Both the position numbers and the translations under genes were made by a program. Under the pieces are notes generated by a model. The model saw only the letters and a program-made list of their open reading frames with translations. It made no database searches and was not told the origin of the DNA. From contig JAQBYC010000039.1 of NCBI GenBank assembly GCA_027623205.1, positions 1-37,478 on the forward strand: a DNA stretch of 37,478 nt. Direction: 5' to 3'. Below are positions 6,718-17,379 of the stretch, piece by piece. Source of the DNA: Pseudomonadota bacterium. Lineage in GTDB: Bacteria > Pseudomonadota > Alphaproteobacteria > GCA-2731375. Every line of letters begins with the position of its first letter. The first letter of the stretch is position 1.

Positions 6718-7484
6718 CCAGCCGTATCCTTGTGTTGCCTGCGCGCCCGAAAGAACTTGTACAACACGGGCAAGGCCGACAAAACCGCCAGACCAGTCAG
6801 CGCCGCCAGAACGTCGTTACTCAAAATCGAACGGACGGACAGTTCCTTGTTGCTGTCCAAAATACTGTCCAGGCCCATGCCGACCTGCGCAAAAACGAAG
6901 GTGCCCGGAATGATGCCGATGAAGGTCGCCAGCACAAAATCCCGCAACCTAACGCCCAAAAAGGCCGGCACCAGATTGACCAGAAAAAATGGGAACAATG
7001 GAATCAAACGCAAAATCAGCAGATAATTGAAGGCGTTCTCTCGAAATCCATCCTCCATTTTCAGCAAGGTCGGTCCAGCCCGGGCACGCAAGGGATCGCC
7101 CAGTGCGGTCTTGGCGATCAAGAATATTGCCGTGGCGCCGATTGTGGCGCCGACCACGACCAGGCCAGTGGCTGCAACGCTGCCGAAAAAAAATCCACTG
7201 GTCACGGTCATGAGCAACGCGCCGGGCAGGGAAAATGCCACCATCACCGCGTAGACTGCAAGAAAGCACAAAGCCATGACGATGGTATGGTCGGCAATGT
7301 ATGTGGCCAGGTCGTTGCGGTACAGACGCAGACTATCCAGGGTAAAATACGCATCACCGCCAACGGCCAGGAAGGCGGCCAAGCCGGCCACCAACAGCAG
7401 TAACGGCCACAACCGGCGCAATGAAAGCAACGGCGCACGCACGGCCACCTTGGCATCCCTTTCGCCCTGATTCTGGCAGCCCAT
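6714..7484 (-). CDS. TVP38/TMEM64 family inner-membrane protein
   Basis: Polytopic membrane protein of the TVP38/TMEM64 (DedA-related, SNARE-associated) family, 256 residues from the chosen ATG. A hydrophobic N-terminal segment (LWPLLLLVAGLAAFLAV) is followed by several more. The family hallmark region G-FFFG-----G-----GA-IG, then F---LILRLIPLFPFFLVN and the re-entrant-like PGTFVFAQVG, is clear. The ATG ending at 7484 is preferred because GGGGTG lies five bases upstream. A GTG at 7538 would add 18 unremarkable residues. It is first in a two-gene minus-strand operon with the FAD reductase and divergent from rpmH. Membrane redox or lipid-related roles are inference. Confidence 0.85.
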   Translation of the reverse strand: MGCQNQGERDAKVAVRAPLLSLRRLWPLLLLVAGLAAFLAVGGDAYFTLDSLRLYRNDLATYIADHTIVMALCFLAVYAVMVAFSLPGALLMTVTSGFFFGSVAATGLVVVGATIGATAIFLIAKTALGDPLRARAGPTLLKMEDGFRENAFNYLLILRLIPLFPFFLVNLVPAFLGVRLRDFVLATFIGIIPGTFVFAQVGMGLDSILDSNKELSVRSILSNDVLAALTGLAVLSALPVLYKFFRARRQHKDTAG

Positions 7485-7648
7485 GGCAACACCCCAAAAA
7501 TGTCTGATGGGGACTATAGCGTAATCCTTGCCTTGCACTAGGGCGGAAGCATTGCCAAATCGACATGCCCATCATGTTATCGTGATGACATGAGGTGGCC
7601 ATGCCGAGGCGCCCCGGCAGCACGGTTGAATTGACGGTCCTGGCGGCG

Positions 7649-7677
7649 TTGACTTCTCGTAATCGAAACCGTATACA
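7649..7677 (+). promoter_or_regulatory. sigma70-type promoter of rpmH
   Basis: TTGACT at 7649-7654 and TATACA at 7672-7677 are separated by exactly 17 bases, a near-consensus housekeeping promoter. Transcription should start near 7684, leaving a leader of about 47 bases before the rpmH GTG. The site drives rpmH and probably rnpA-yidD-yidC-yihA. It is a visual match only. Confidence 0.75.
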
Positions 7678-7730
7678 GCGCGTCTTGTTTTGGGTCCCTA
7701 ACGGGCCGAATTTTTTATGGAGGTTGAGGG

Positions 7731-7865
7731 GTGAAACGCACCTACCAACCAAGCAGACTGGTTCGCAAACACCGGCATGGCTTTCGTCACCGCATGGCGA
7801 CCGTTGGCGGTCGCCGTGTTCTGGCAAAGCGCCGGTCCAGGGGCCGCAAGCAACTTTCTGCATAG
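7731..7865 (+). CDS. rpmH: 50S ribosomal protein L34
   Basis: Ribosomal protein L34 of 44 residues, too short for many gene finders. It reads [20 protein letters not shown] and then [20 protein letters not shown], the canonical, very basic L34 sequence at full length. The start is GTG at 7731 behind a GGAGG ribosome binding site at about 7720; the usual L34 begins MKRTYQPS, which fixes the start. It heads the classic rpmH-rnpA-yidD-yidC cluster. Confidence 0.97.
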
Positions 7866-11133: not shown

Positions 11134-12036
11134 ATGACCAATACGCTACAAGACGAACAATTGCACACTGCCCGGACCCTGTCCGAGGCGCTGCCTTACA
11201 TGCGCCGCTTCGCGGGTCAGACTTTCGTCATCAAGTATGGCGGTCATGCCATGGGCGATGCTGAACTTGCGGATAATTTCGCCCGGGATGTCGTACTGAT
11301 GAAGCAGGTCGGCATCAACCCGGTGGTGGTGCACGGTGGCGGCCCGCGAATTGGCGCCATGTTGGACCGCCTGAAGATCAAAAGTTCGTTTATCGACGGC
11401 CTCCGCGTCACCGACGCCGCAACCGTGGAAATTGTGGAGATGGTGTTGTCCGGCTCGATCAACAAGGCGGTGGTCACCGCCATCAACGGCGCCGGCGGCG
11501 TGGCCATTGGCCTGTCGGGCAAGGATGGCCGCCTGATCGAGGCGCGCAAATTACAGCGCACGACCCGGGATCCGGATTCCAATATCGAAAAAGTGTTGGA
11601 CCTGGGCTTTGTCGGAGAACCGGTGCGTATCAATCCGGACCTGCTGCAGATTTTTGCGCAATCCGATCTGATACCGGTAATCGCGCCCATTGGTGTCGGC
11701 GCCGGCGGGGAAACCTATAACATCAACGCCGATACGGTCGCAGGAAAGATCGCCGCCACCCTGCGGGCCGCCAAACTGGTGATGCTGACGGACATCGCCG
11801 GGGTCTTGGATGGGAATGGCGCGTTAATTTCGAAGATGACACCTGGCCAGGCCAATGATTTAATGAGTGAGGGGGTCATCACGGGCGGCATGATCCCAAA
11901 GCTGGAAACCTGCCTGAGCGCCGTGCAACAGGGTGTTGGCGCGGCGCATATTCTGGATGGCCGGCTGCCCCATGTACTGTTGTTGGAAGCCTTTACCGCG
12001 GCCGGCGTCGGCACCATGATCGAGGGCGGCGAATAG
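11134..12036 (+). CDS. argB: acetylglutamate kinase
   Basis: Phosphorylates N-acetyl-L-glutamate, the second step of arginine synthesis. The amino-acid kinase fold is recognised from [11 protein letters not shown] (N-terminal lysine and glycine loop), [11 protein letters not shown], then GLSGKDG and [30 protein letters not shown]. The length of 300 residues is normal. The extended N-terminal helix before FVIKYGG is the type that mediates hexamer formation and arginine feedback in the family, but sensitivity cannot be proved here. The yihA-argB order is common in alphaproteobacteria. It converges with a DUF2336 gene 29 bases downstream, with no clear intrinsic terminator between them. Confidence 0.96.
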
Positions 12037-12065: not shown

Positions 12066-13319
12066 CTACCGCAGCAGCTTCAATTGTTGTTCCAGTTCCG
12101 CCTTGCTGAGAGGATAATCGATCCCATTGCGGGCATTCAGAATGGATTGCGGACGCACCCGGGCGATGCGGAGCTGTAGCTGCATAGCCGTGCGCATGGA
12201 AAAATTGGCTTTCCAGGCCAGCGCGGTCACCGCCCGCGCGTTCGCTGAATCGAGCACGTCATCCACTACGTCGATCGGCAATCCGGTTTTCAAGGCAATA
12301 CCATGAACCACGAACTCCCGGTCGCCGTCACTTATCGCCTCCTGCAACGCGTCATCATTCAATCCGCCGGCGTTGAACAGTGCGGTCGCTGCATCCTTGC
12401 CGTCACCAATCTTCGCCCGCTCGCCATCCATCGCCGCGGCGCCATCGGAACGGATCCCTTCCCGCACGGCCTTGGCCAGATCGGCGGCAGTGGCTGCATC
12501 GATGTCGTTGCGGCTGCATAGGGTTTCCACCAACGACGCGGCCACAAAACCCGCAATCCGGCGGATCGCACCATTGGTCAGTGAGGGCCATTTCACCAGC
12601 GGCTTGTGCCAAGGCTCCACCGCCGCGGCATTGTCAATAATCCAATCCAGCGTATCCTCGCGCAACTGCGCACTATCGTTTGCCAACAAGGCAGCGACCG
12701 CCTTGGCATCCAGGGTCTGGGCTACCGCATCGGCGACATCACCGCCCAGGCCCCGGCGTTTCGCGACAGCGCTGAGGCTGCCGGCTTGCCGGCCGGCCGC
12801 GATGATTTCCAGCAGATCCTGGTCGTTTAAAAGAGGTGAGAATTGCAGGACCGGCGCGGCGACGATGACCTCCAGATCCCGCGCCAGTTGCAGGACGATA
12901 TCCTTGGGCACGTTCTCGGCCGATTTCAGATGCTCCGAGATGATCGCCCTGACCCTGGGCAATTGGTCCGTTGCCAGTTCGCGCAGCACCGTGATTGTCA
13001 GCGCCCCGGCCTTTTCCCGTTGCTCGACGGACCATTCAGGCACCAGACTGCCGATCTTGTCAGCCAATTGATAGCGGACCTCGTCATCACCGTCCTGTAC
13101 CAGTTTGGCATCCGCCTTGACCGGCGTCGAACGGTTGGAGGCAATGGCACGCCGCACTTCAGGCACATTGTCATCGGCGAGGTAGTACAGGACCTCTGGC
13201 TGGGTGTCTTCGCGCCTGGCCAGACGCAGGCGTTCCTTGGTATTATTCTGTTCCAGCGCGCTGCGCTGTTCTTCGTAGCTTTTCGGCTTTGAAATACGGC
13301 TAAGCAATGATTTCAACAT
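12066..13319 (-). CDS. DUF2336 protein, first of two paralogues (downstream copy)
   Basis: Protein of 417 residues in the uncharacterised alphaproteobacterial DUF2336 family. It is all-helical with HEAT-like repeats, seen as recurring segments such as QPEVLYYLADDNVPEVRRAIASN and DEVRYQLADKIG. Conserved blocks are PVLQFSPLLNDQDLLEIIAAG, RRIAGFVAASLVE and the C-terminal ALAWKANFSMRTAMQLQLRIARV. No catalytic motif, signal peptide or membrane segment is visible. The start ATG (13317-13319) overlaps the 3' end of the GGDEF gene by seven bases, with an AAGGAC ribosome binding site inside that gene. A scaffold or partner role for the cyclase is inference from the operon. Confidence 0.8.
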   Translation of the reverse strand: MLKSLLSRISKPKSYEEQRSALEQNNTKERLRLARREDTQPEVLYYLADDNVPEVRRAIASNRSTPVKADAKLVQDGDDEVRYQLADKIGSLVPEWSVEQREKAGALTITVLRELATDQLPRVRAIISEHLKSAENVPKDIVLQLARDLEVIVAAPVLQFSPLLNDQDLLEIIAAGRQAGSLSAVAKRRGLGGDVADAVAQTLDAKAVAALLANDSAQLREDTLDWIIDNAAAVEPWHKPLVKWPSLTNGAIRRIAGFVAASLVETLCSRNDIDAATAADLAKAVREGIRSDGAAAMDGERAKIGDGKDAATALFNAGGLNDDALQEAISDGDREFVVHGIALKTGLPIDVVDDVLDSANARAVTALAWKANFSMRTAMQLQLRIARVRPQSILNARNGIDYPLSKAELEQQLKLLR

Positions 13320-15220
13320 GTCGAAAAGTCCTTCGCATCCGGCGCATCCGGCGCATCCGGCGCATCGCCCTCAGCGCCACACCCTTCGGTGAGAACAACC
13401 AGACCTCGACCATTGCGCTTTGCCCGATAAAGCGCGCGGTCAGCTCGATGGATCAAACGCTCCAGGTCGTCATCGATATTGGGATCTATCACGGCGACAC
13501 CGATGGAAATGGACAGGGGATGTGCGGCATCGCCGGAAAAACGCCTTAAGCTGGCGGCGGTTGCCAGCAGTTCCTCCGCCTTGTGACGGGCGCCTTCCAG
13601 GCCGGTTTCTTCCAACCACACCACGAATTCATCACCGCCCAGCCGGCCAGATATGTCACTCTCGCGGCCCTTGCCGTTGCTCAGTAATTTGGCCAGGGCG
13701 ACCAGGGCCTCGTCGCCAATTTGATGGCCATGGGTATCATTGACGGATTTAAAATGATCCATATCGATGTATAGCAGCGCGCCGAAGCGCTTTTGCCGCT
13801 TGTGCTGGGCGATACGTTTACCGACGACGTCATGAAAGCCGCGACGGTTTAGCAGACCGGTCAATTCATCTACGCTTGAGAGTTCTTCCAACCGCTCCTG
13901 AACCTCTGCCTGGGCGATGGCTATGCCCAATTGCGAGGCGATATCCAGCAATGTTGTCGCCGCGTCTCCCACGGCGCCGACGTCATCCAGGGCAACCGCG
14001 ACGACACCCTTGGGCTGATAACGGAAAGGGCAGGGCACCAGCAAAAGTTGCTGTGCGCCCAGGGCCACGTGGCTGACCCGGTCAAGGTCCCCGCTGAAGC
14101 TCCGCGCGGCCTCTTCCAGAACATCGATACCCAGGGCATCGACGGCGATCCGTTCGGCGGCCAGTTTCAGGCCGCCGTTGATGCTATTCCGCAGGATCCA
14201 GACGTGCGAGGCCTTGATCGCCGTGGCGGTGGCGGCTGCAGCGGCCGAGAACATCTCGTTCGGAGTCATGGCGTCGCGCATGGAATCGACGATGGAGCGG
14301 CGCAATCGTTCGCGCTCCTGCGCGCGGACCAAGGCGGCTTGTTGCAGTGTATCCTCGGTGATATCGCGGCAGACCCCGCGTACGGCCTGCAAGGCGCCGG
14401 CATCATCAACCACCGGCAGACACGAGACGCGCACACAGGCCCGGGCACCATTCCGGTCCAGCAACCAACATTCGATCTCGTCTAAATGCGTTCGGCTTTC
14501 AAAGGGATTCGACCCGCCATCCCGGCCATCAGCCGCCACTGGATCTGCCAACAGATCCCGCGCCCGGCGGCCATTCAACTCGTCAGGGGTATAGCCCAAA
14601 AGGCCACCGCCGGAAACAAAAGCAAAGCAGCCCTCCGCGTCGGTCTCCCAAACGAAGTCGGTGGAGCAGGACACCAGATCCTTAAACAATTGCCGGGAAG
14701 CGACCAGGGCACGGCTGAAATTCACATCAAAGGTATTATCCCGCGCCAACAGCAAAATTCGCTTCGGTGTTTGGTTGGCACCGCCCGCGCCGTCGATGTC
14801 ATCGTCGCCCGCGCCTGTATCTCTTTCCGGTAGCAAGGTAATGTCGAAAACACCTACCCCGGCGGGTATGGGCAATTGGAAGCGTTTGGTACGCACGCCG
14901 CCACTATTTAGGACCTGATGCAACATGGCGCGAAGATCGCCGCCCGCGGGCCCGCGCAAGGCCGCCACGACGGGACCAGCAAGTGCGTTCGCCAGCAACA
15001 CCGTACCCGCCTCATCAAACAACGCCATCGGCCCATCATAGTCCGCCGTCAGATCGGTGGCCCGCAGCATCAGTGGCCCCATGCCGCCGGGTGCATCTAA
15101 TTGCGGACCTGCATCGGCGTCGCCAAATGCGGTGCGTTTTATAGGGATATTTACCACGTCGTCCGCTTTATCTTTGCCTTGCCTGATCCTCAGGTTTCCG
15201 AACAGGCACAACCTATCCAA
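13313..15220 (-). CDS. PAS-PAS-GAF-GGDEF diguanylate cyclase
   Basis: Multidomain sensor of 635 residues that should make cyclic di-GMP. It has a PAS-like region at about 60-150, a clearer PAS at about 183-295 (FKDLVSCSTDFVWETDAEG, then LGYTPDELNGR and a PAC-like end), a GAF-like region at about 310-455 and a GGDEF domain from VDELTGLLNRRGF. The active site GGDEF is intact at 528-532, and an inhibitory I-site RESD lies five residues before its RLGGDEF context (519-522). No membrane segment is seen, so it is cytoplasmic. The longest frame starts at TTG 15220 with weak support; ATG at 15082 (MGPLML) is a possible alternative. The tail holds an Ala-Pro-Asp repeat. Confidence 0.88.
   Translation of the reverse strand: MDRLCLFGNLRIRQGKDKADDVVNIPIKRTAFGDADAGPQLDAPGGMGPLMLRATDLTADYDGPMALFDEAGTVLLANALAGPVVAALRGPAGGDLRAMLHQVLNSGGVRTKRFQLPIPAGVGVFDITLLPERDTGAGDDDIDGAGGANQTPKRILLLARDNTFDVNFSRALVASRQLFKDLVSCSTDFVWETDAEGCFAFVSGGGLLGYTPDELNGRRARDLLADPVAADGRDGGSNPFESRTHLDEIECWLLDRNGARACVRVSCLPVVDDAGALQAVRGVCRDITEDTLQQAALVRAQERERLRRSIVDSMRDAMTPNEMFSAAAAATATAIKASHVWILRNSINGGLKLAAERIAVDALGIDVLEEAARSFSGDLDRVSHVALGAQQLLLVPCPFRYQPKGVVAVALDDVGAVGDAATTLLDIASQLGIAIAQAEVQERLEELSSVDELTGLLNRRGFHDVVGKRIAQHKRQKRFGALLYIDMDHFKSVNDTHGHQIGDEALVALAKLLSNGKGRESDISGRLGGDEFVVWLEETGLEGARHKAEELLATAASLRRFSGDAAHPLSISIGVAVIDPNIDDDLERLIHRADRALYRAKRNGRGLVVLTEGCGAEGDAPDAPDAPDAKDFSTC
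13335..13366. repeat. 9-bp tandem repeat (GCATCCGGC) in the GGDEF gene tail
   Basis: Three exact copies of GCATCCGGC (13335-13343, 13344-13352, 13353-13361) are followed by a partial fourth. On the minus strand they encode Ala-Pro-Asp repeats near the C-terminus of the GGDEF protein. They lie just upstream of the ribosome binding site of the overlapping DUF2336 gene. Changes in copy number would keep the reading frame. Confidence 0.9.
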
Positions 15221-15278
15221 TGGGCTCTTAACGGCGTCTTAATCACGGGAAATTTGCGCTGACGTTTTGCGCCAAACA

Positions 15279-16592
15279 TCACAGCTCCTTCACCAGTAAC
15301 GCCGCCATTTCCGCCGGTGTAAGGGGATAATCGGTGCCATGGCGGGCATTCAGCATTCTCTTCGGTGGAATACGGGCAGTACGGCTTTGCAACTGGATCG
15401 CCGTGCGCATGGACAACTTGGCCTTCCAGGCCAGGGCTGTCACGACCTTGGGCGAGGCGCCGGTTACGATCTTCCGCACTATTTCGGGGGGCAGTTCGGA
15501 ACGCAGGGTCAAGGCTTCCAGAACGAAATCGGTGCGCGCCGACAGGATCGCCTGCTCCATCGCCTCGTCGTCCAGCAGCATGCTTTGATCCAAAGCTCTG
15601 GCTTGTTCCTGTTCCTCTAGTTGCAACGCACCCTCGGTTTTATCGATCCGGGCCTTTAACCGCTTGCTCAAAAAACGAGTGGTGTCCCCATCCAGATCGT
15701 TGCGTTCCGCCAGCACCCGCAACAGTGAAGAGGCGACAAAGCCGGCCACGCGGCGCACGGCACGAATGGAAAGCTCGGGCCGCATCACCAGCGGTTCGTG
15801 CCAACGTTGCACCTCCGCCGCATTATTGGTGATCTTGTCCAGGGTCGCTTCCCGCACCGAAGCGTTCTTGTTGGCCAGCAGGGTCGCCACCGCCGGCACG
15901 TCAAATGTGGCGACCACCGCGTCCGAGACATCCTCCGAAACATGATCCCGACGGGCGATGGCGCACAGGGCTTCCTGGGCACAGCCCGCCGCAATCACCT
16001 CCATCAGATCCAAATCGCTCAACAATGGCGAGTATTCCAGCACCGGGGCCGAGACAATAACCGCGACATCCAGAGCCAGTTGCCGCACGATGGAGACGGG
16101 CACGCGGCGGCTGCTCTTCAGTTCCTCCGCCAACAAAGCCCGCACCCGGGGCAATTGATCAGAGGCCAGACGTTTGAGCATATCGAAGGTCAGTTCGCGC
16201 ACCTTTTCCTGCTCGTCGTGCGACATATCGGGCAACAGACGGGCAATTTTCAAGGTCAGGTCGCTGCGCACCTCTTCGTCGGCATCGTCGGCCAGCATCG
16301 CGTCTGCCTGCACCGGTGTCGCAGGATTGGCCGCCACCGCCTGCCGCACGTCGCCACTTTCGTCGCCGGCCAAATAGTACAGAATTTCGGGCCGCGTATC
16401 TGGCGAGCCAGCCAGTTGCAGGCGCGCCGCCAGATCCGACGCCGCCAGCAATTCTTTCTGGGCGCCGTACTCCATGCCGCCCTCGGCGGCCAACCCGGAC
16501 AAGAGCGCCGGAAGGCGCCCAGACGCTGGCGCCGGATTGGAAGAGGAACCGGCCGGCGGGGCCATTTTGCGTTTCAAAAGATTCTTGAGCAT
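15279..16592 (-). CDS. DUF2336 protein, second paralogue (first gene of the operon)
   Basis: Protein of 437 residues, clearly paralogous to the product of 12066-13319. Shared blocks include RPEILYYLAGDESGDVRQAVAANPATPVQADAMLADDADEEVR, PVLEYSPLLSDLDLMEVIAAG, RRVAGFVASSLLRVLAERNDLD and VVTALAWKAKLSMRTAIQLQ. The helical HEAT-like pattern is the same, with no enzyme motif. It has an extra Pro/Ala/Ser-rich N-terminal stretch (about 10-40). The start ATG ends at 16592; no strong ribosome binding site precedes it and the internal Met10 is an alternative. It lies 58 bases upstream of the GGDEF gene and is probably co-transcribed. It diverges from the HAD nucleotidase gene. Confidence 0.8.
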   Translation of the reverse strand: MLKNLLKRKMAPPAGSSSNPAPASGRLPALLSGLAAEGGMEYGAQKELLAASDLAARLQLAGSPDTRPEILYYLAGDESGDVRQAVAANPATPVQADAMLADDADEEVRSDLTLKIARLLPDMSHDEQEKVRELTFDMLKRLASDQLPRVRALLAEELKSSRRVPVSIVRQLALDVAVIVSAPVLEYSPLLSDLDLMEVIAAGCAQEALCAIARRDHVSEDVSDAVVATFDVPAVATLLANKNASVREATLDKITNNAAEVQRWHEPLVMRPELSIRAVRRVAGFVASSLLRVLAERNDLDGDTTRFLSKRLKARIDKTEGALQLEEQEQARALDQSMLLDDEAMEQAILSARTDFVLEALTLRSELPPEIVRKIVTGASPKVVTALAWKAKLSMRTAIQLQSRTARIPPKRMLNARHGTDYPLTPAEMAALLVKEL

Positions 16593-16704
16593 TGCACGAA
16601 AATTTTATCGACCGTTCATTAATGCGCTGTTAATGGCGGTGCCGGCGGGGCCGGCTGTGCTGGTATGGCTTGCCTTTCAGAGCGGATACACCCAGTTTAG
16701 TCAT

Positions 16705-17379
16705 ATGCAGGCAACAACCGCCCCAAATCTTCACAATATCGACGTTTGGATCTTTGATCTGGACAATACGCTCTATCCCGTGGGCTGCGACCTGGGCACC
16801 CAATTGGGGCGGCGGATGGGGGAGTTCGTGGCGCAATTTCTGGGTCTTCCCCTGGATCAGGCCCGGGTGGTGCAAAAGCAGTATTTCCACGCCCATGGCA
16901 CCACTCTGCGGGGACTGATGGTCGAACATGGCCTGGACCCGGGCGACTATCTGGACTATGTCCACGACTTGGACCTATCCGGCATACCCATCGACGAGCG
17001 CCTGGGTCAGGCCCTGGAAGCCTTGCCGGGACGTAAAGTGGTCTATACCAACGCCACCACCAAGCATGCCAGACGGGTGGTTGGCCATTTAGGTATACAG
17101 CATCATTTCGATGGGTTTTTTGACATCGTCGACGCCGACTTCATGCCCAAACCGAACCACAGTCCCTATGACGCCGTACTGGACCGCCATGACATCGATC
17201 CCACGACGGCCGTGATGGTCGAGGATATCGCACAAAACCTGATGCCGGCGGCCAATCTTGGCATGGCCACGGTCTGGGTTCGCGGCGGCCGCGGCCTGAC
17301 CCTGACGGCTGAGCAAATCCCCCATGTCCACCACGTCACCGACGATTTGCCGGGCTGGTTGTTGGATTTGCCGGGGTGA
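16705..17379 (+). CDS. HAD-family pyrimidine 5'-nucleotidase
   Basis: Haloacid-dehalogenase phosphatase of 224 residues resembling the Sdt1/YjjG-like pyrimidine 5'-nucleotidase group. Motif I is IFDLDNTLYP (D18 nucleophile, D20 acid/base), motif II is VVYTNATT, a lysine lies in FMPKPNHSPYD and motif III is MVEDIAQNL. ATG 16705 is chosen because it places motif I about 17 residues from the N-terminus as in relatives; longer frames overlap the divergent DUF2336 gene. The ribosome binding site is weak. A close upstream neighbour of dapD in some alphaproteobacteria, it is likely a housekeeping nucleotide phosphatase. Confidence 0.85.
   Translation: MQATTAPNLHNIDVWIFDLDNTLYPVGCDLGTQLGRRMGEFVAQFLGLPLDQARVVQKQYFHAHGTTLRGLMVEHGLDPGDYLDYVHDLDLSGIPIDERLGQALEALPGRKVVYTNATTKHARRVVGHLGIQHHFDGFFDIVDADFMPKPNHSPYDAVLDRHDIDPTTAVMVEDIAQNLMPAANLGMATVWVRGGRGLTLTAEQIPHVHHVTDDLPGWLLDLPG

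What the first reader, a model, noticed from the sequence alone, without database searches (positions are those of the whole stretch)
12066..16592. Operon with a diguanylate cyclase flanked by two DUF2336 paralogues
Three same-strand genes run DUF2336 (15279-16592), PAS/GAF/GGDEF (13313-15220), DUF2336 (12066-13319), with a 58-base gap and then a 7-base overlap. The two DUF2336 proteins share long blocks (SPLLxDxDLxExIAAG, RRxAGFVAxSL, TALAWKAxxSMRTAxQLQ) and are helical-repeat proteins with no catalytic motif. The cyclase has an intact GGDEF and an RxxD inhibitory site. The module sits between argB and the 5'-nucleotidase/dapD genes, so it appears inserted in a housekeeping neighbourhood. A possible reading is a cytoplasmic c-di-GMP signalling complex in which DUF2336 proteins act as scaffolds or effectors.
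Basis: partly seen in the sequence, partly recalled or inferred. Interest (0 to 1): 0.62.

Follow-up and report, generated by a model that had tools for sequence, protein, structure and literature searches.

The report
CtrA-box cyclase operon with HEAT-repeat partners
Across many alphaproteobacteria, an enzyme that makes the signal molecule c-di-GMP is locked together with an uncharacterised helical-repeat protein at one fixed chromosomal site, often behind a switch element typical of the motility and cell-cycle regulator CtrA; this window shows a version in which the partner has been duplicated.

Summary
In detail: DUFa (15279-16592), PAS-PAS-GAF-GGDEF cyclase (13313-~15157) and DUFb (12066-13319) form a same-strand operon. 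It is not an insertion. In a survey of 192 alphaproteobacterial genomes, 58 of 61 cyclases of this type sit directly 5' of one DUF2336 gene. In most loci read, starts overlap stops and the pair lies between argB and a 5'-nucleotidase/dapD. DUFa is a tandem duplicate found only in this genus and its sister genus. Cyclase catalytic and inhibitory motifs are nearly always intact, but in a few lineages the GGDEF domain decayed or vanished while sensor and DUF2336 remained. DUF2336 genes also occur alone; such cyclases almost never do.

New finding: perfect CtrA boxes (TTAA-N7-TTAA) lie before the module in 50 of 122 loci (0.55 expected), essentially only at 7-base spacing. The window has two, one before DUFa and one before the cyclase. 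The genome has 29 in 5 Mb, others before ctrA/fliI, flagellin and cheZ.

Best reading: a CtrA-regulon c-di-GMP module. The DUF2336 HEAT-like solenoid is a dedicated protein-binding partner, probably of the sensor half. It is a paralogue of Caulobacter SpbR, not an SpbR. Conservation and boxes are shown; interaction, localisation and CtrA binding are inferred.

The parts
15279..16592 (-). DUFa: DUF2336 HEAT-like solenoid protein, 437 aa; lineage-specific extra copy, 5' of the cyclase
   Evidence: ATG start conserved in genus; monophyletic with the sister genus copy
13313..15157 (-). PAS-PAS-GAF-GGDEF diguanylate cyclase, probable GTG start at 15157 (ORF runs up to TTG 15220)
14354..14656 (-). 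Second PAS domain of the cyclase
   Evidence: Pfam PAS_9 residues 189-289
13406..13876 (-). GGDEF domain
   Evidence: Pfam residues 449-605
13655..13666 (-). RxxD inhibitory site (RESD)
   Evidence: present in 87 of 97 relatives
13625..13639 (-). GGDEF active-site motif
   Evidence: GGDEF/GGEEF in 96 of 97 relatives
12066..13319 (-). DUFb: DUF2336 HEAT-like solenoid protein, 417 aa, in the class-wide conserved position 3' of the cyclase
13313..13319 (-). 7-base stop/start overlap ATGTTGA, probable translational coupling
   Evidence: overlaps in 70 of 97 relatives
16619..16633 (.). CtrA box 1, TTAACAGCGCATTAA on the minus strand, 26 bases 5' of the DUFa ATG
15228..15242 (.). CtrA box 2, TTAAGACGCCGTTAA on the minus strand, between DUFa and the cyclase, 70 bases 5' of GTG 15157
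11134..12036 (+). argB, convergent neighbour marking the conserved site
16705..17379 (+). 5'-nucleotidase-like HAD gene, divergent neighbour, followed by dapD and dapE

Best explanation
The module is a CtrA-regulon c-di-GMP signalling unit. CtrA acts at boxes in front of DUFa and the cyclase to set expression alongside flagellar and chemotaxis genes (inferred from boxes). The cytoplasmic PAS-PAS-GAF sensor controls a catalytically competent, product-inhibited GGDEF domain (inferred from motifs). The DUF2336 protein, made by translational coupling in roughly equal amounts, is an alpha-solenoid that binds the cyclase, most likely its sensor half, and also binds at least one further cellular target. 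It thereby places or gates the cyclase so that c-di-GMP is made at a defined site or moment during the motile-sessile or cell-cycle switch. Given known c-di-GMP action on CckA/CtrA in Caulobacter, a negative feedback on CtrA is plausible (inference). In this genus DUF2336 was duplicated, so the cyclase has two diverged partners, with DUFa under its own CtrA box. Shown: module, synteny, duplication, domain make-up, boxes. Inferred: binding, localisation, feedback.
For: 58 of 61 such cyclases in 192 class genomes lie directly 5' of a DUF2336 gene (one exception is at a contig end, one a weak hit); genome co-occurrence 57 both / 15 DUF only / 2 cyclase only, Fisher p 5e-32, not corrected for phylogeny. 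Start/stop overlap in 70 of 97 pairs, a further 23 within 40 nt. Same argB-nt5-dapD site in most loci read. GGDEF/GGEEF 96 of 97, RxxD 87 of 97. Sensor kept with DUF2336 while GGDEF degenerated or was lost in L101, L102, L155 and L169. CtrA box at N7 in 50 of 122 loci vs 0.55 expected, shuffles mean 0.62 (max 3), other spacings 0-5. 29 boxes in 5.0 Mb: two here, others before ctrA/fliI, flagellin and cheZ. CtrA binds TTAA-N7-TTAA across Alphaproteobacteria (PMC9437464; PMC7200025). DUFb model all-alpha, pLDDT 92.8, best matches PP2A-A and alphaRep HEAT scaffolds. Paralogue SpbR is tied to cell-pole development in Caulobacter by the title of its paper.
Against: No interaction data and no complex model. 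DUF2336 persists without the cyclase in 15 of 72 genomes, so it must also work without it. Box absent from more than half the loci. Rate covariation of DUF2336 with cyclase domains (partial r 0.32-0.47) is no higher than some housekeeping controls. Foldseek hits to HEAT proteins show a fold, not a function.
Confidence: 0.6

Rival explanations
1. DUF2336 is the downstream effector: it binds the c-di-GMP made by its neighbour (or the I-site bearing GGDEF domain) and passes the signal on.
For: Fixed pairing with an active-looking cyclase; in L102 the GGDEF motif is lost but the RxxD site is kept.
Against: DUF2336 is kept in genomes that lost the local cyclase and is kept with sensors that lost GGDEF entirely (L155, L169). 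The model is a plain HEAT-like solenoid and no c-di-GMP-binding domain was matched.
Confidence: 0.15
2. The DUF2336-sensor pair is the primary device, for example a PAS/GAF-gated polar or motility regulator, and c-di-GMP synthesis is a secondary output that is lost easily.
For: Loss series in one clade: degenerate GGDEF (L101), GGDEF absent (L155), cyclase gone (L137), DUF2336 always kept. Rate covariation is highest with PAS1/PAS2 and lowest with GGDEF.
Against: In 96 of 97 intact cyclases GGDEF/GGEEF is strictly kept, so catalysis is under selection in most lineages. The covariation test does not exceed its controls.
Confidence: 0.2
3. Ordinary operon neighbours: the two genes share a promoter and a syntenic site but have no joint function.
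For: The site itself is syntenic and rarely rearranged.
Against: Pairing is also kept in loci away from the argB/nt5 site (e.g. L050, L064, L065, L176); stop/start overlap is kept through large divergence; SpbR-type DUF2336 genes show no such pairing, 0 of 20.
Confidence: 0.05
4. The TTAA-N7-TTAA boxes serve the divergent nucleotidase gene, not the module.
For: In most loci the box lies in the divergent intergenic region.
Against: In this genus and its sister a second box lies between DUFa and the cyclase, far from the nucleotidase, and is kept in all 11 genomes aligned. L050 has a box with no nucleotidase detected in the 15-kb stretch.
Confidence: 0.06

Closest known systems
SpbR of Caulobacter (NCBIfam NF052659; Wang and Bowman 2019, cited in PMC12700997)
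   Same: Same DUF2336 superfamily; both outer window proteins hit the SpbR model at 130-144 bits.
   Different: Far below the 400-bit equivalog cut-off. The genome has a separate, much closer SpbR-like protein at another locus (312 bits). SpbR loci lack a GGDEF neighbour, 0 of 20.
PleD-PopA-CckA/CtrA c-di-GMP circuit of Caulobacter
   Same: A diguanylate cyclase tied to CtrA control of motility and cell cycle (as summarised in PMC7200025).
   Different: The cyclase has PAS/GAF sensors instead of receiver domains; its coupled partner is a HEAT-like solenoid; it is encoded at argB-dapD; no pathway link has been tested.
CtrA-controlled c-di-GMP genes of Hyphomonas neptunium (PMC7200025)
   Same: CtrA directly controls six predicted c-di-GMP metabolism genes there.
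   Different: The main text does not mention GGDEF, DUF2336 or argB; whether any of those genes is this module was not tested.
HEAT-repeat scaffolds such as the PP2A A subunit and designed alphaRep proteins
   Same: Predicted alpha-solenoid fold, Z about 13-14 over residues 1-304.
   Different: About 15% identity, high rmsd, no shared function implied.

Membership tests
DUF2336 (PF10098) | Profile score above gathering cut-off 34.6 bits | tested here: met
   139.6 and 168.7 bits
SpbR equivalog (NF052659) | Score of at least 400 bits | tested here: not met
   130.1 and 143.7 bits; true SpbR loci elsewhere score above 400
SpbR equivalog (NF052659) | Cell-pole location and role | not testable with these tools
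   A DUF2497 (PopZ-type) gene exists in the genome; location untested
Diguanylate cyclase | GGDEF domain with intact active-site motif | tested here: met
   GGDEF E 1.8e-40, motif GGDEF
Diguanylate cyclase | RxxD product-inhibition site five residues before GGDEF | tested here: met
   RESD
Diguanylate cyclase | Enzyme activity | not testable with these tools
   Sequence only
CtrA regulon | TTAA-N7-TTAA in the promoter region | tested here: met
   Two perfect boxes in the window; enriched at this promoter across the class
CtrA regulon | CtrA orthologue encoded in the genome | tested here: met
CtrA regulon | CtrA binding and CtrA-dependent expression | not testable with these tools
   Needs ChIP-seq or a ctrA mutant
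HEAT-repeat scaffold | Alpha-solenoid of paired helices | tested here: met
   Model pLDDT 92.8, all helical, Foldseek and VIA-align matches to HEAT solenoids; HEAT Pfam hit just above cut-off for DUFa, just below for DUFb

The most novel reading that the evidence does not exclude
An old, class-wide CtrA-controlled device in which each PAS-GAF-GGDEF cyclase has its own HEAT-solenoid partner that confines c-di-GMP production to a subcellular site and feeds back on CtrA; the DUF2336 superfamily, SpbR included, would then be a family of c-di-GMP/polarity adaptors.
Probability: 0.3. Interest if true: 0.78.

Novelty: new variant of a known kind. Interest (0 to 1): 0.6.

Why it matters
No held paper mentions DUF2336 or COG5330, and Pfam gives it no function. 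This work ties one of its subfamilies to a named partner enzyme, a fixed locus and a named regulator, which makes its function directly testable. It also suggests a dedicated partner protein as an answer to how one cyclase among several acts specifically. PMC12700997 notes SpbR as one of only two of 26 dimorphic-development regulators not yet linked to c-di-GMP; the DUF2336-cyclase pairing offers a lead for that link.

Tried and rejected
Recent insertion: rejected, same site across the class. Window DUF2336 as SpbR: rejected by score and by a separate SpbR-like gene. Sequence search for solved relatives of DUFa: none at E up to 1. Mirror-tree test for which cyclase domain co-evolves with DUF2336: weak, not above housekeeping controls. 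Natural GGDEF-DUF2336 fusion to model the interface: none seen among the loci read; long overlapping ORFs (L054, L055, L125) are alternative frames, not fusions. First degenerate search with the 17-row alignment failed for lack of conserved stretches and was replaced by an 8-row one. Direct coupling analysis was not run: too few pairs (about 90).

Full report
Observation. The three ORFs are at the stated places on the minus strand. Pfam gives DUF2336 for both outer proteins and PAS plus GGDEF for the middle one. The DUF2336 pair is 48% identical over 396 aa. GGDEF and the RxxD site are intact. Alignment with relatives places the cyclase start at GTG 15157 rather than TTG 15220. A model of a homologue (L053, pLDDT 84) shows PAS, PAS, GAF-like and GGDEF domains in order.

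Recurrence. In 61 related genomes the DUFa-cyclase-DUFb triple is found in the window genome, in nine of the ten other species of the genus sampled (one split over two contigs, one with the cyclase ORF broken in two) and in the sister genus. Other families carry the cyclase followed by one DUF2336 gene. A scan of GTDB contigs gave 79 loci, most with the same pair, in Sneathiella, Kordiimonas, Zavarzinia, Iodidimonas, Eilatimonas, Oceanibacterium and many MAGs. In most of them the order is argB - DUF2336 - cyclase - nucleotidase - dapD - dapE, so the module is an old resident and not an insertion.

Asymmetry. In a class sample of 192 genomes, module-type DUF2336 occurs in 72, the cyclase in 59, both in 57; 58 of 61 cyclases are directly 5' of DUF2336. 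The unpaired ones are a contig end (G128), a weak hit (G189) and a second copy in G109. DUF2336 occurs alone in 15 genomes. A separate deep clade of solo DUF2336 genes is neither at argB nor next to GGDEF. SpbR-type paralogues have no GGDEF within 1.5 kb, 0 of 20. In a phylum-wide sample of 299 genomes all matches listed were in the same class.

Catalysis and decay. Of 97 paired cyclases, 96 keep GGDEF/GGEEF and 87 keep RxxD; 70 of 97 pairs have overlapping stop and start codons. In L102 GGDEF has become HDALF with RVGD kept; L101 is degenerate; L155 has lost the GGDEF domain cleanly yet keeps the 7-base overlap; L169 is similar. L101, L155 and the cyclase-free L137 form one supported clade. 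The retained sensor plus DUF2336 suggests that these two parts work with each other; this is an inference.

Duplication. DUFa and DUFb form separate clades (98-100% SH-aLRT), each including the sister genus, so the duplication predates that split. The DUFb stem is longer than that of DUFa although DUFb keeps the conserved position. Another tandem pair, 3' of its cyclase, occurs in L140.

CtrA boxes. Aligning the intergenic regions of the genus exposed two strictly kept TTAA-N7-TTAA elements. The window holds exactly two such sites, at 15228 and 16619, out of 29 in the 5.0-Mb genome. Across 122 module promoters, 50 carry a perfect site against 0.55 expected from the rest of the same loci; dinucleotide shuffles give a mean of 0.62 and a maximum of 3; other spacings from 3 to 13 give 0 to 5; 40 different spacer sequences occur. 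Loci are related, so these are not independent trials. The genome has a CtrA orthologue whose own promoter, shared with a fliI-like gene, carries a box; flagellin, cheZ-like and histidine kinase genes carry others. TTAA-N7-TTAA is the CtrA consensus conserved across the class (PMC9437464; PMC7200025). Module-bearing genomes have flagellin in 65 of 72 cases against 48 of 120 without the module; genome size and ancestry confound this.

Structure and mechanism. DUFb is modelled as an all-alpha solenoid (pLDDT 92.8, pTM 0.78) resembling HEAT scaffolds, with no matched catalytic or c-di-GMP-binding domain. The best reading is a protein-binding partner that places or gates the cyclase. The genome has 7 GGDEF and 5 EAL domains and one PopZ-type gene, so a specificity factor for one cyclase is plausible. 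Binding, location and feedback to CtrA are inferences. A co-evolution test was not decisive.

Novelty. No held paper mentions DUF2336 or COG5330, or a diguanylate cyclase together with argB and dapD. CtrA control of c-di-GMP genes is known in general (PMC7200025). The specific class-wide cyclase-DUF2336 module and its CtrA boxes appear undescribed in the open papers searched; subscription papers were not searched.

Noticed in passing
L040 (G004:C21), about 7064-7777: A species of the same genus has only a broken DUFa remnant away from the argB site and no other relative at the cut-off used: apparent loss of the module within the genus (MAG, 7% contamination).
   Followed up: partly
L140:5963-10260: Tandem DUF2336 duplication 3' of the cyclase in another lineage, apparently independent of DUFa.
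   Followed up: partly
L173:5546-7189: A second cyclase of this type lies next to engB without an adjacent DUF2336 gene in a genome that also has the normal pair.
   Followed up: no
L142:5543-13181: Locus with extra GGDEF-matching genes on both sides of the module, one between argB and engB.
   Followed up: no
L205, L206, L210, L212: 4 of 28 non-module (mostly SpbR) DUF2336 promoters also carry a perfect TTAA-N7-TTAA, so SpbR itself may belong to the CtrA regulon in some lineages.
   Followed up: partly
L235:1614-3131 (G000:C128): A class III adenylate/guanylate cyclase-like gene with a CtrA box upstream, a few hundred bases from an EAL gene on the same contig.
   Followed up: no
L045:5237-7042: The cyclase ORF is broken into two pieces in one genus member (G008): assembly error or decay.
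   Followed up: no
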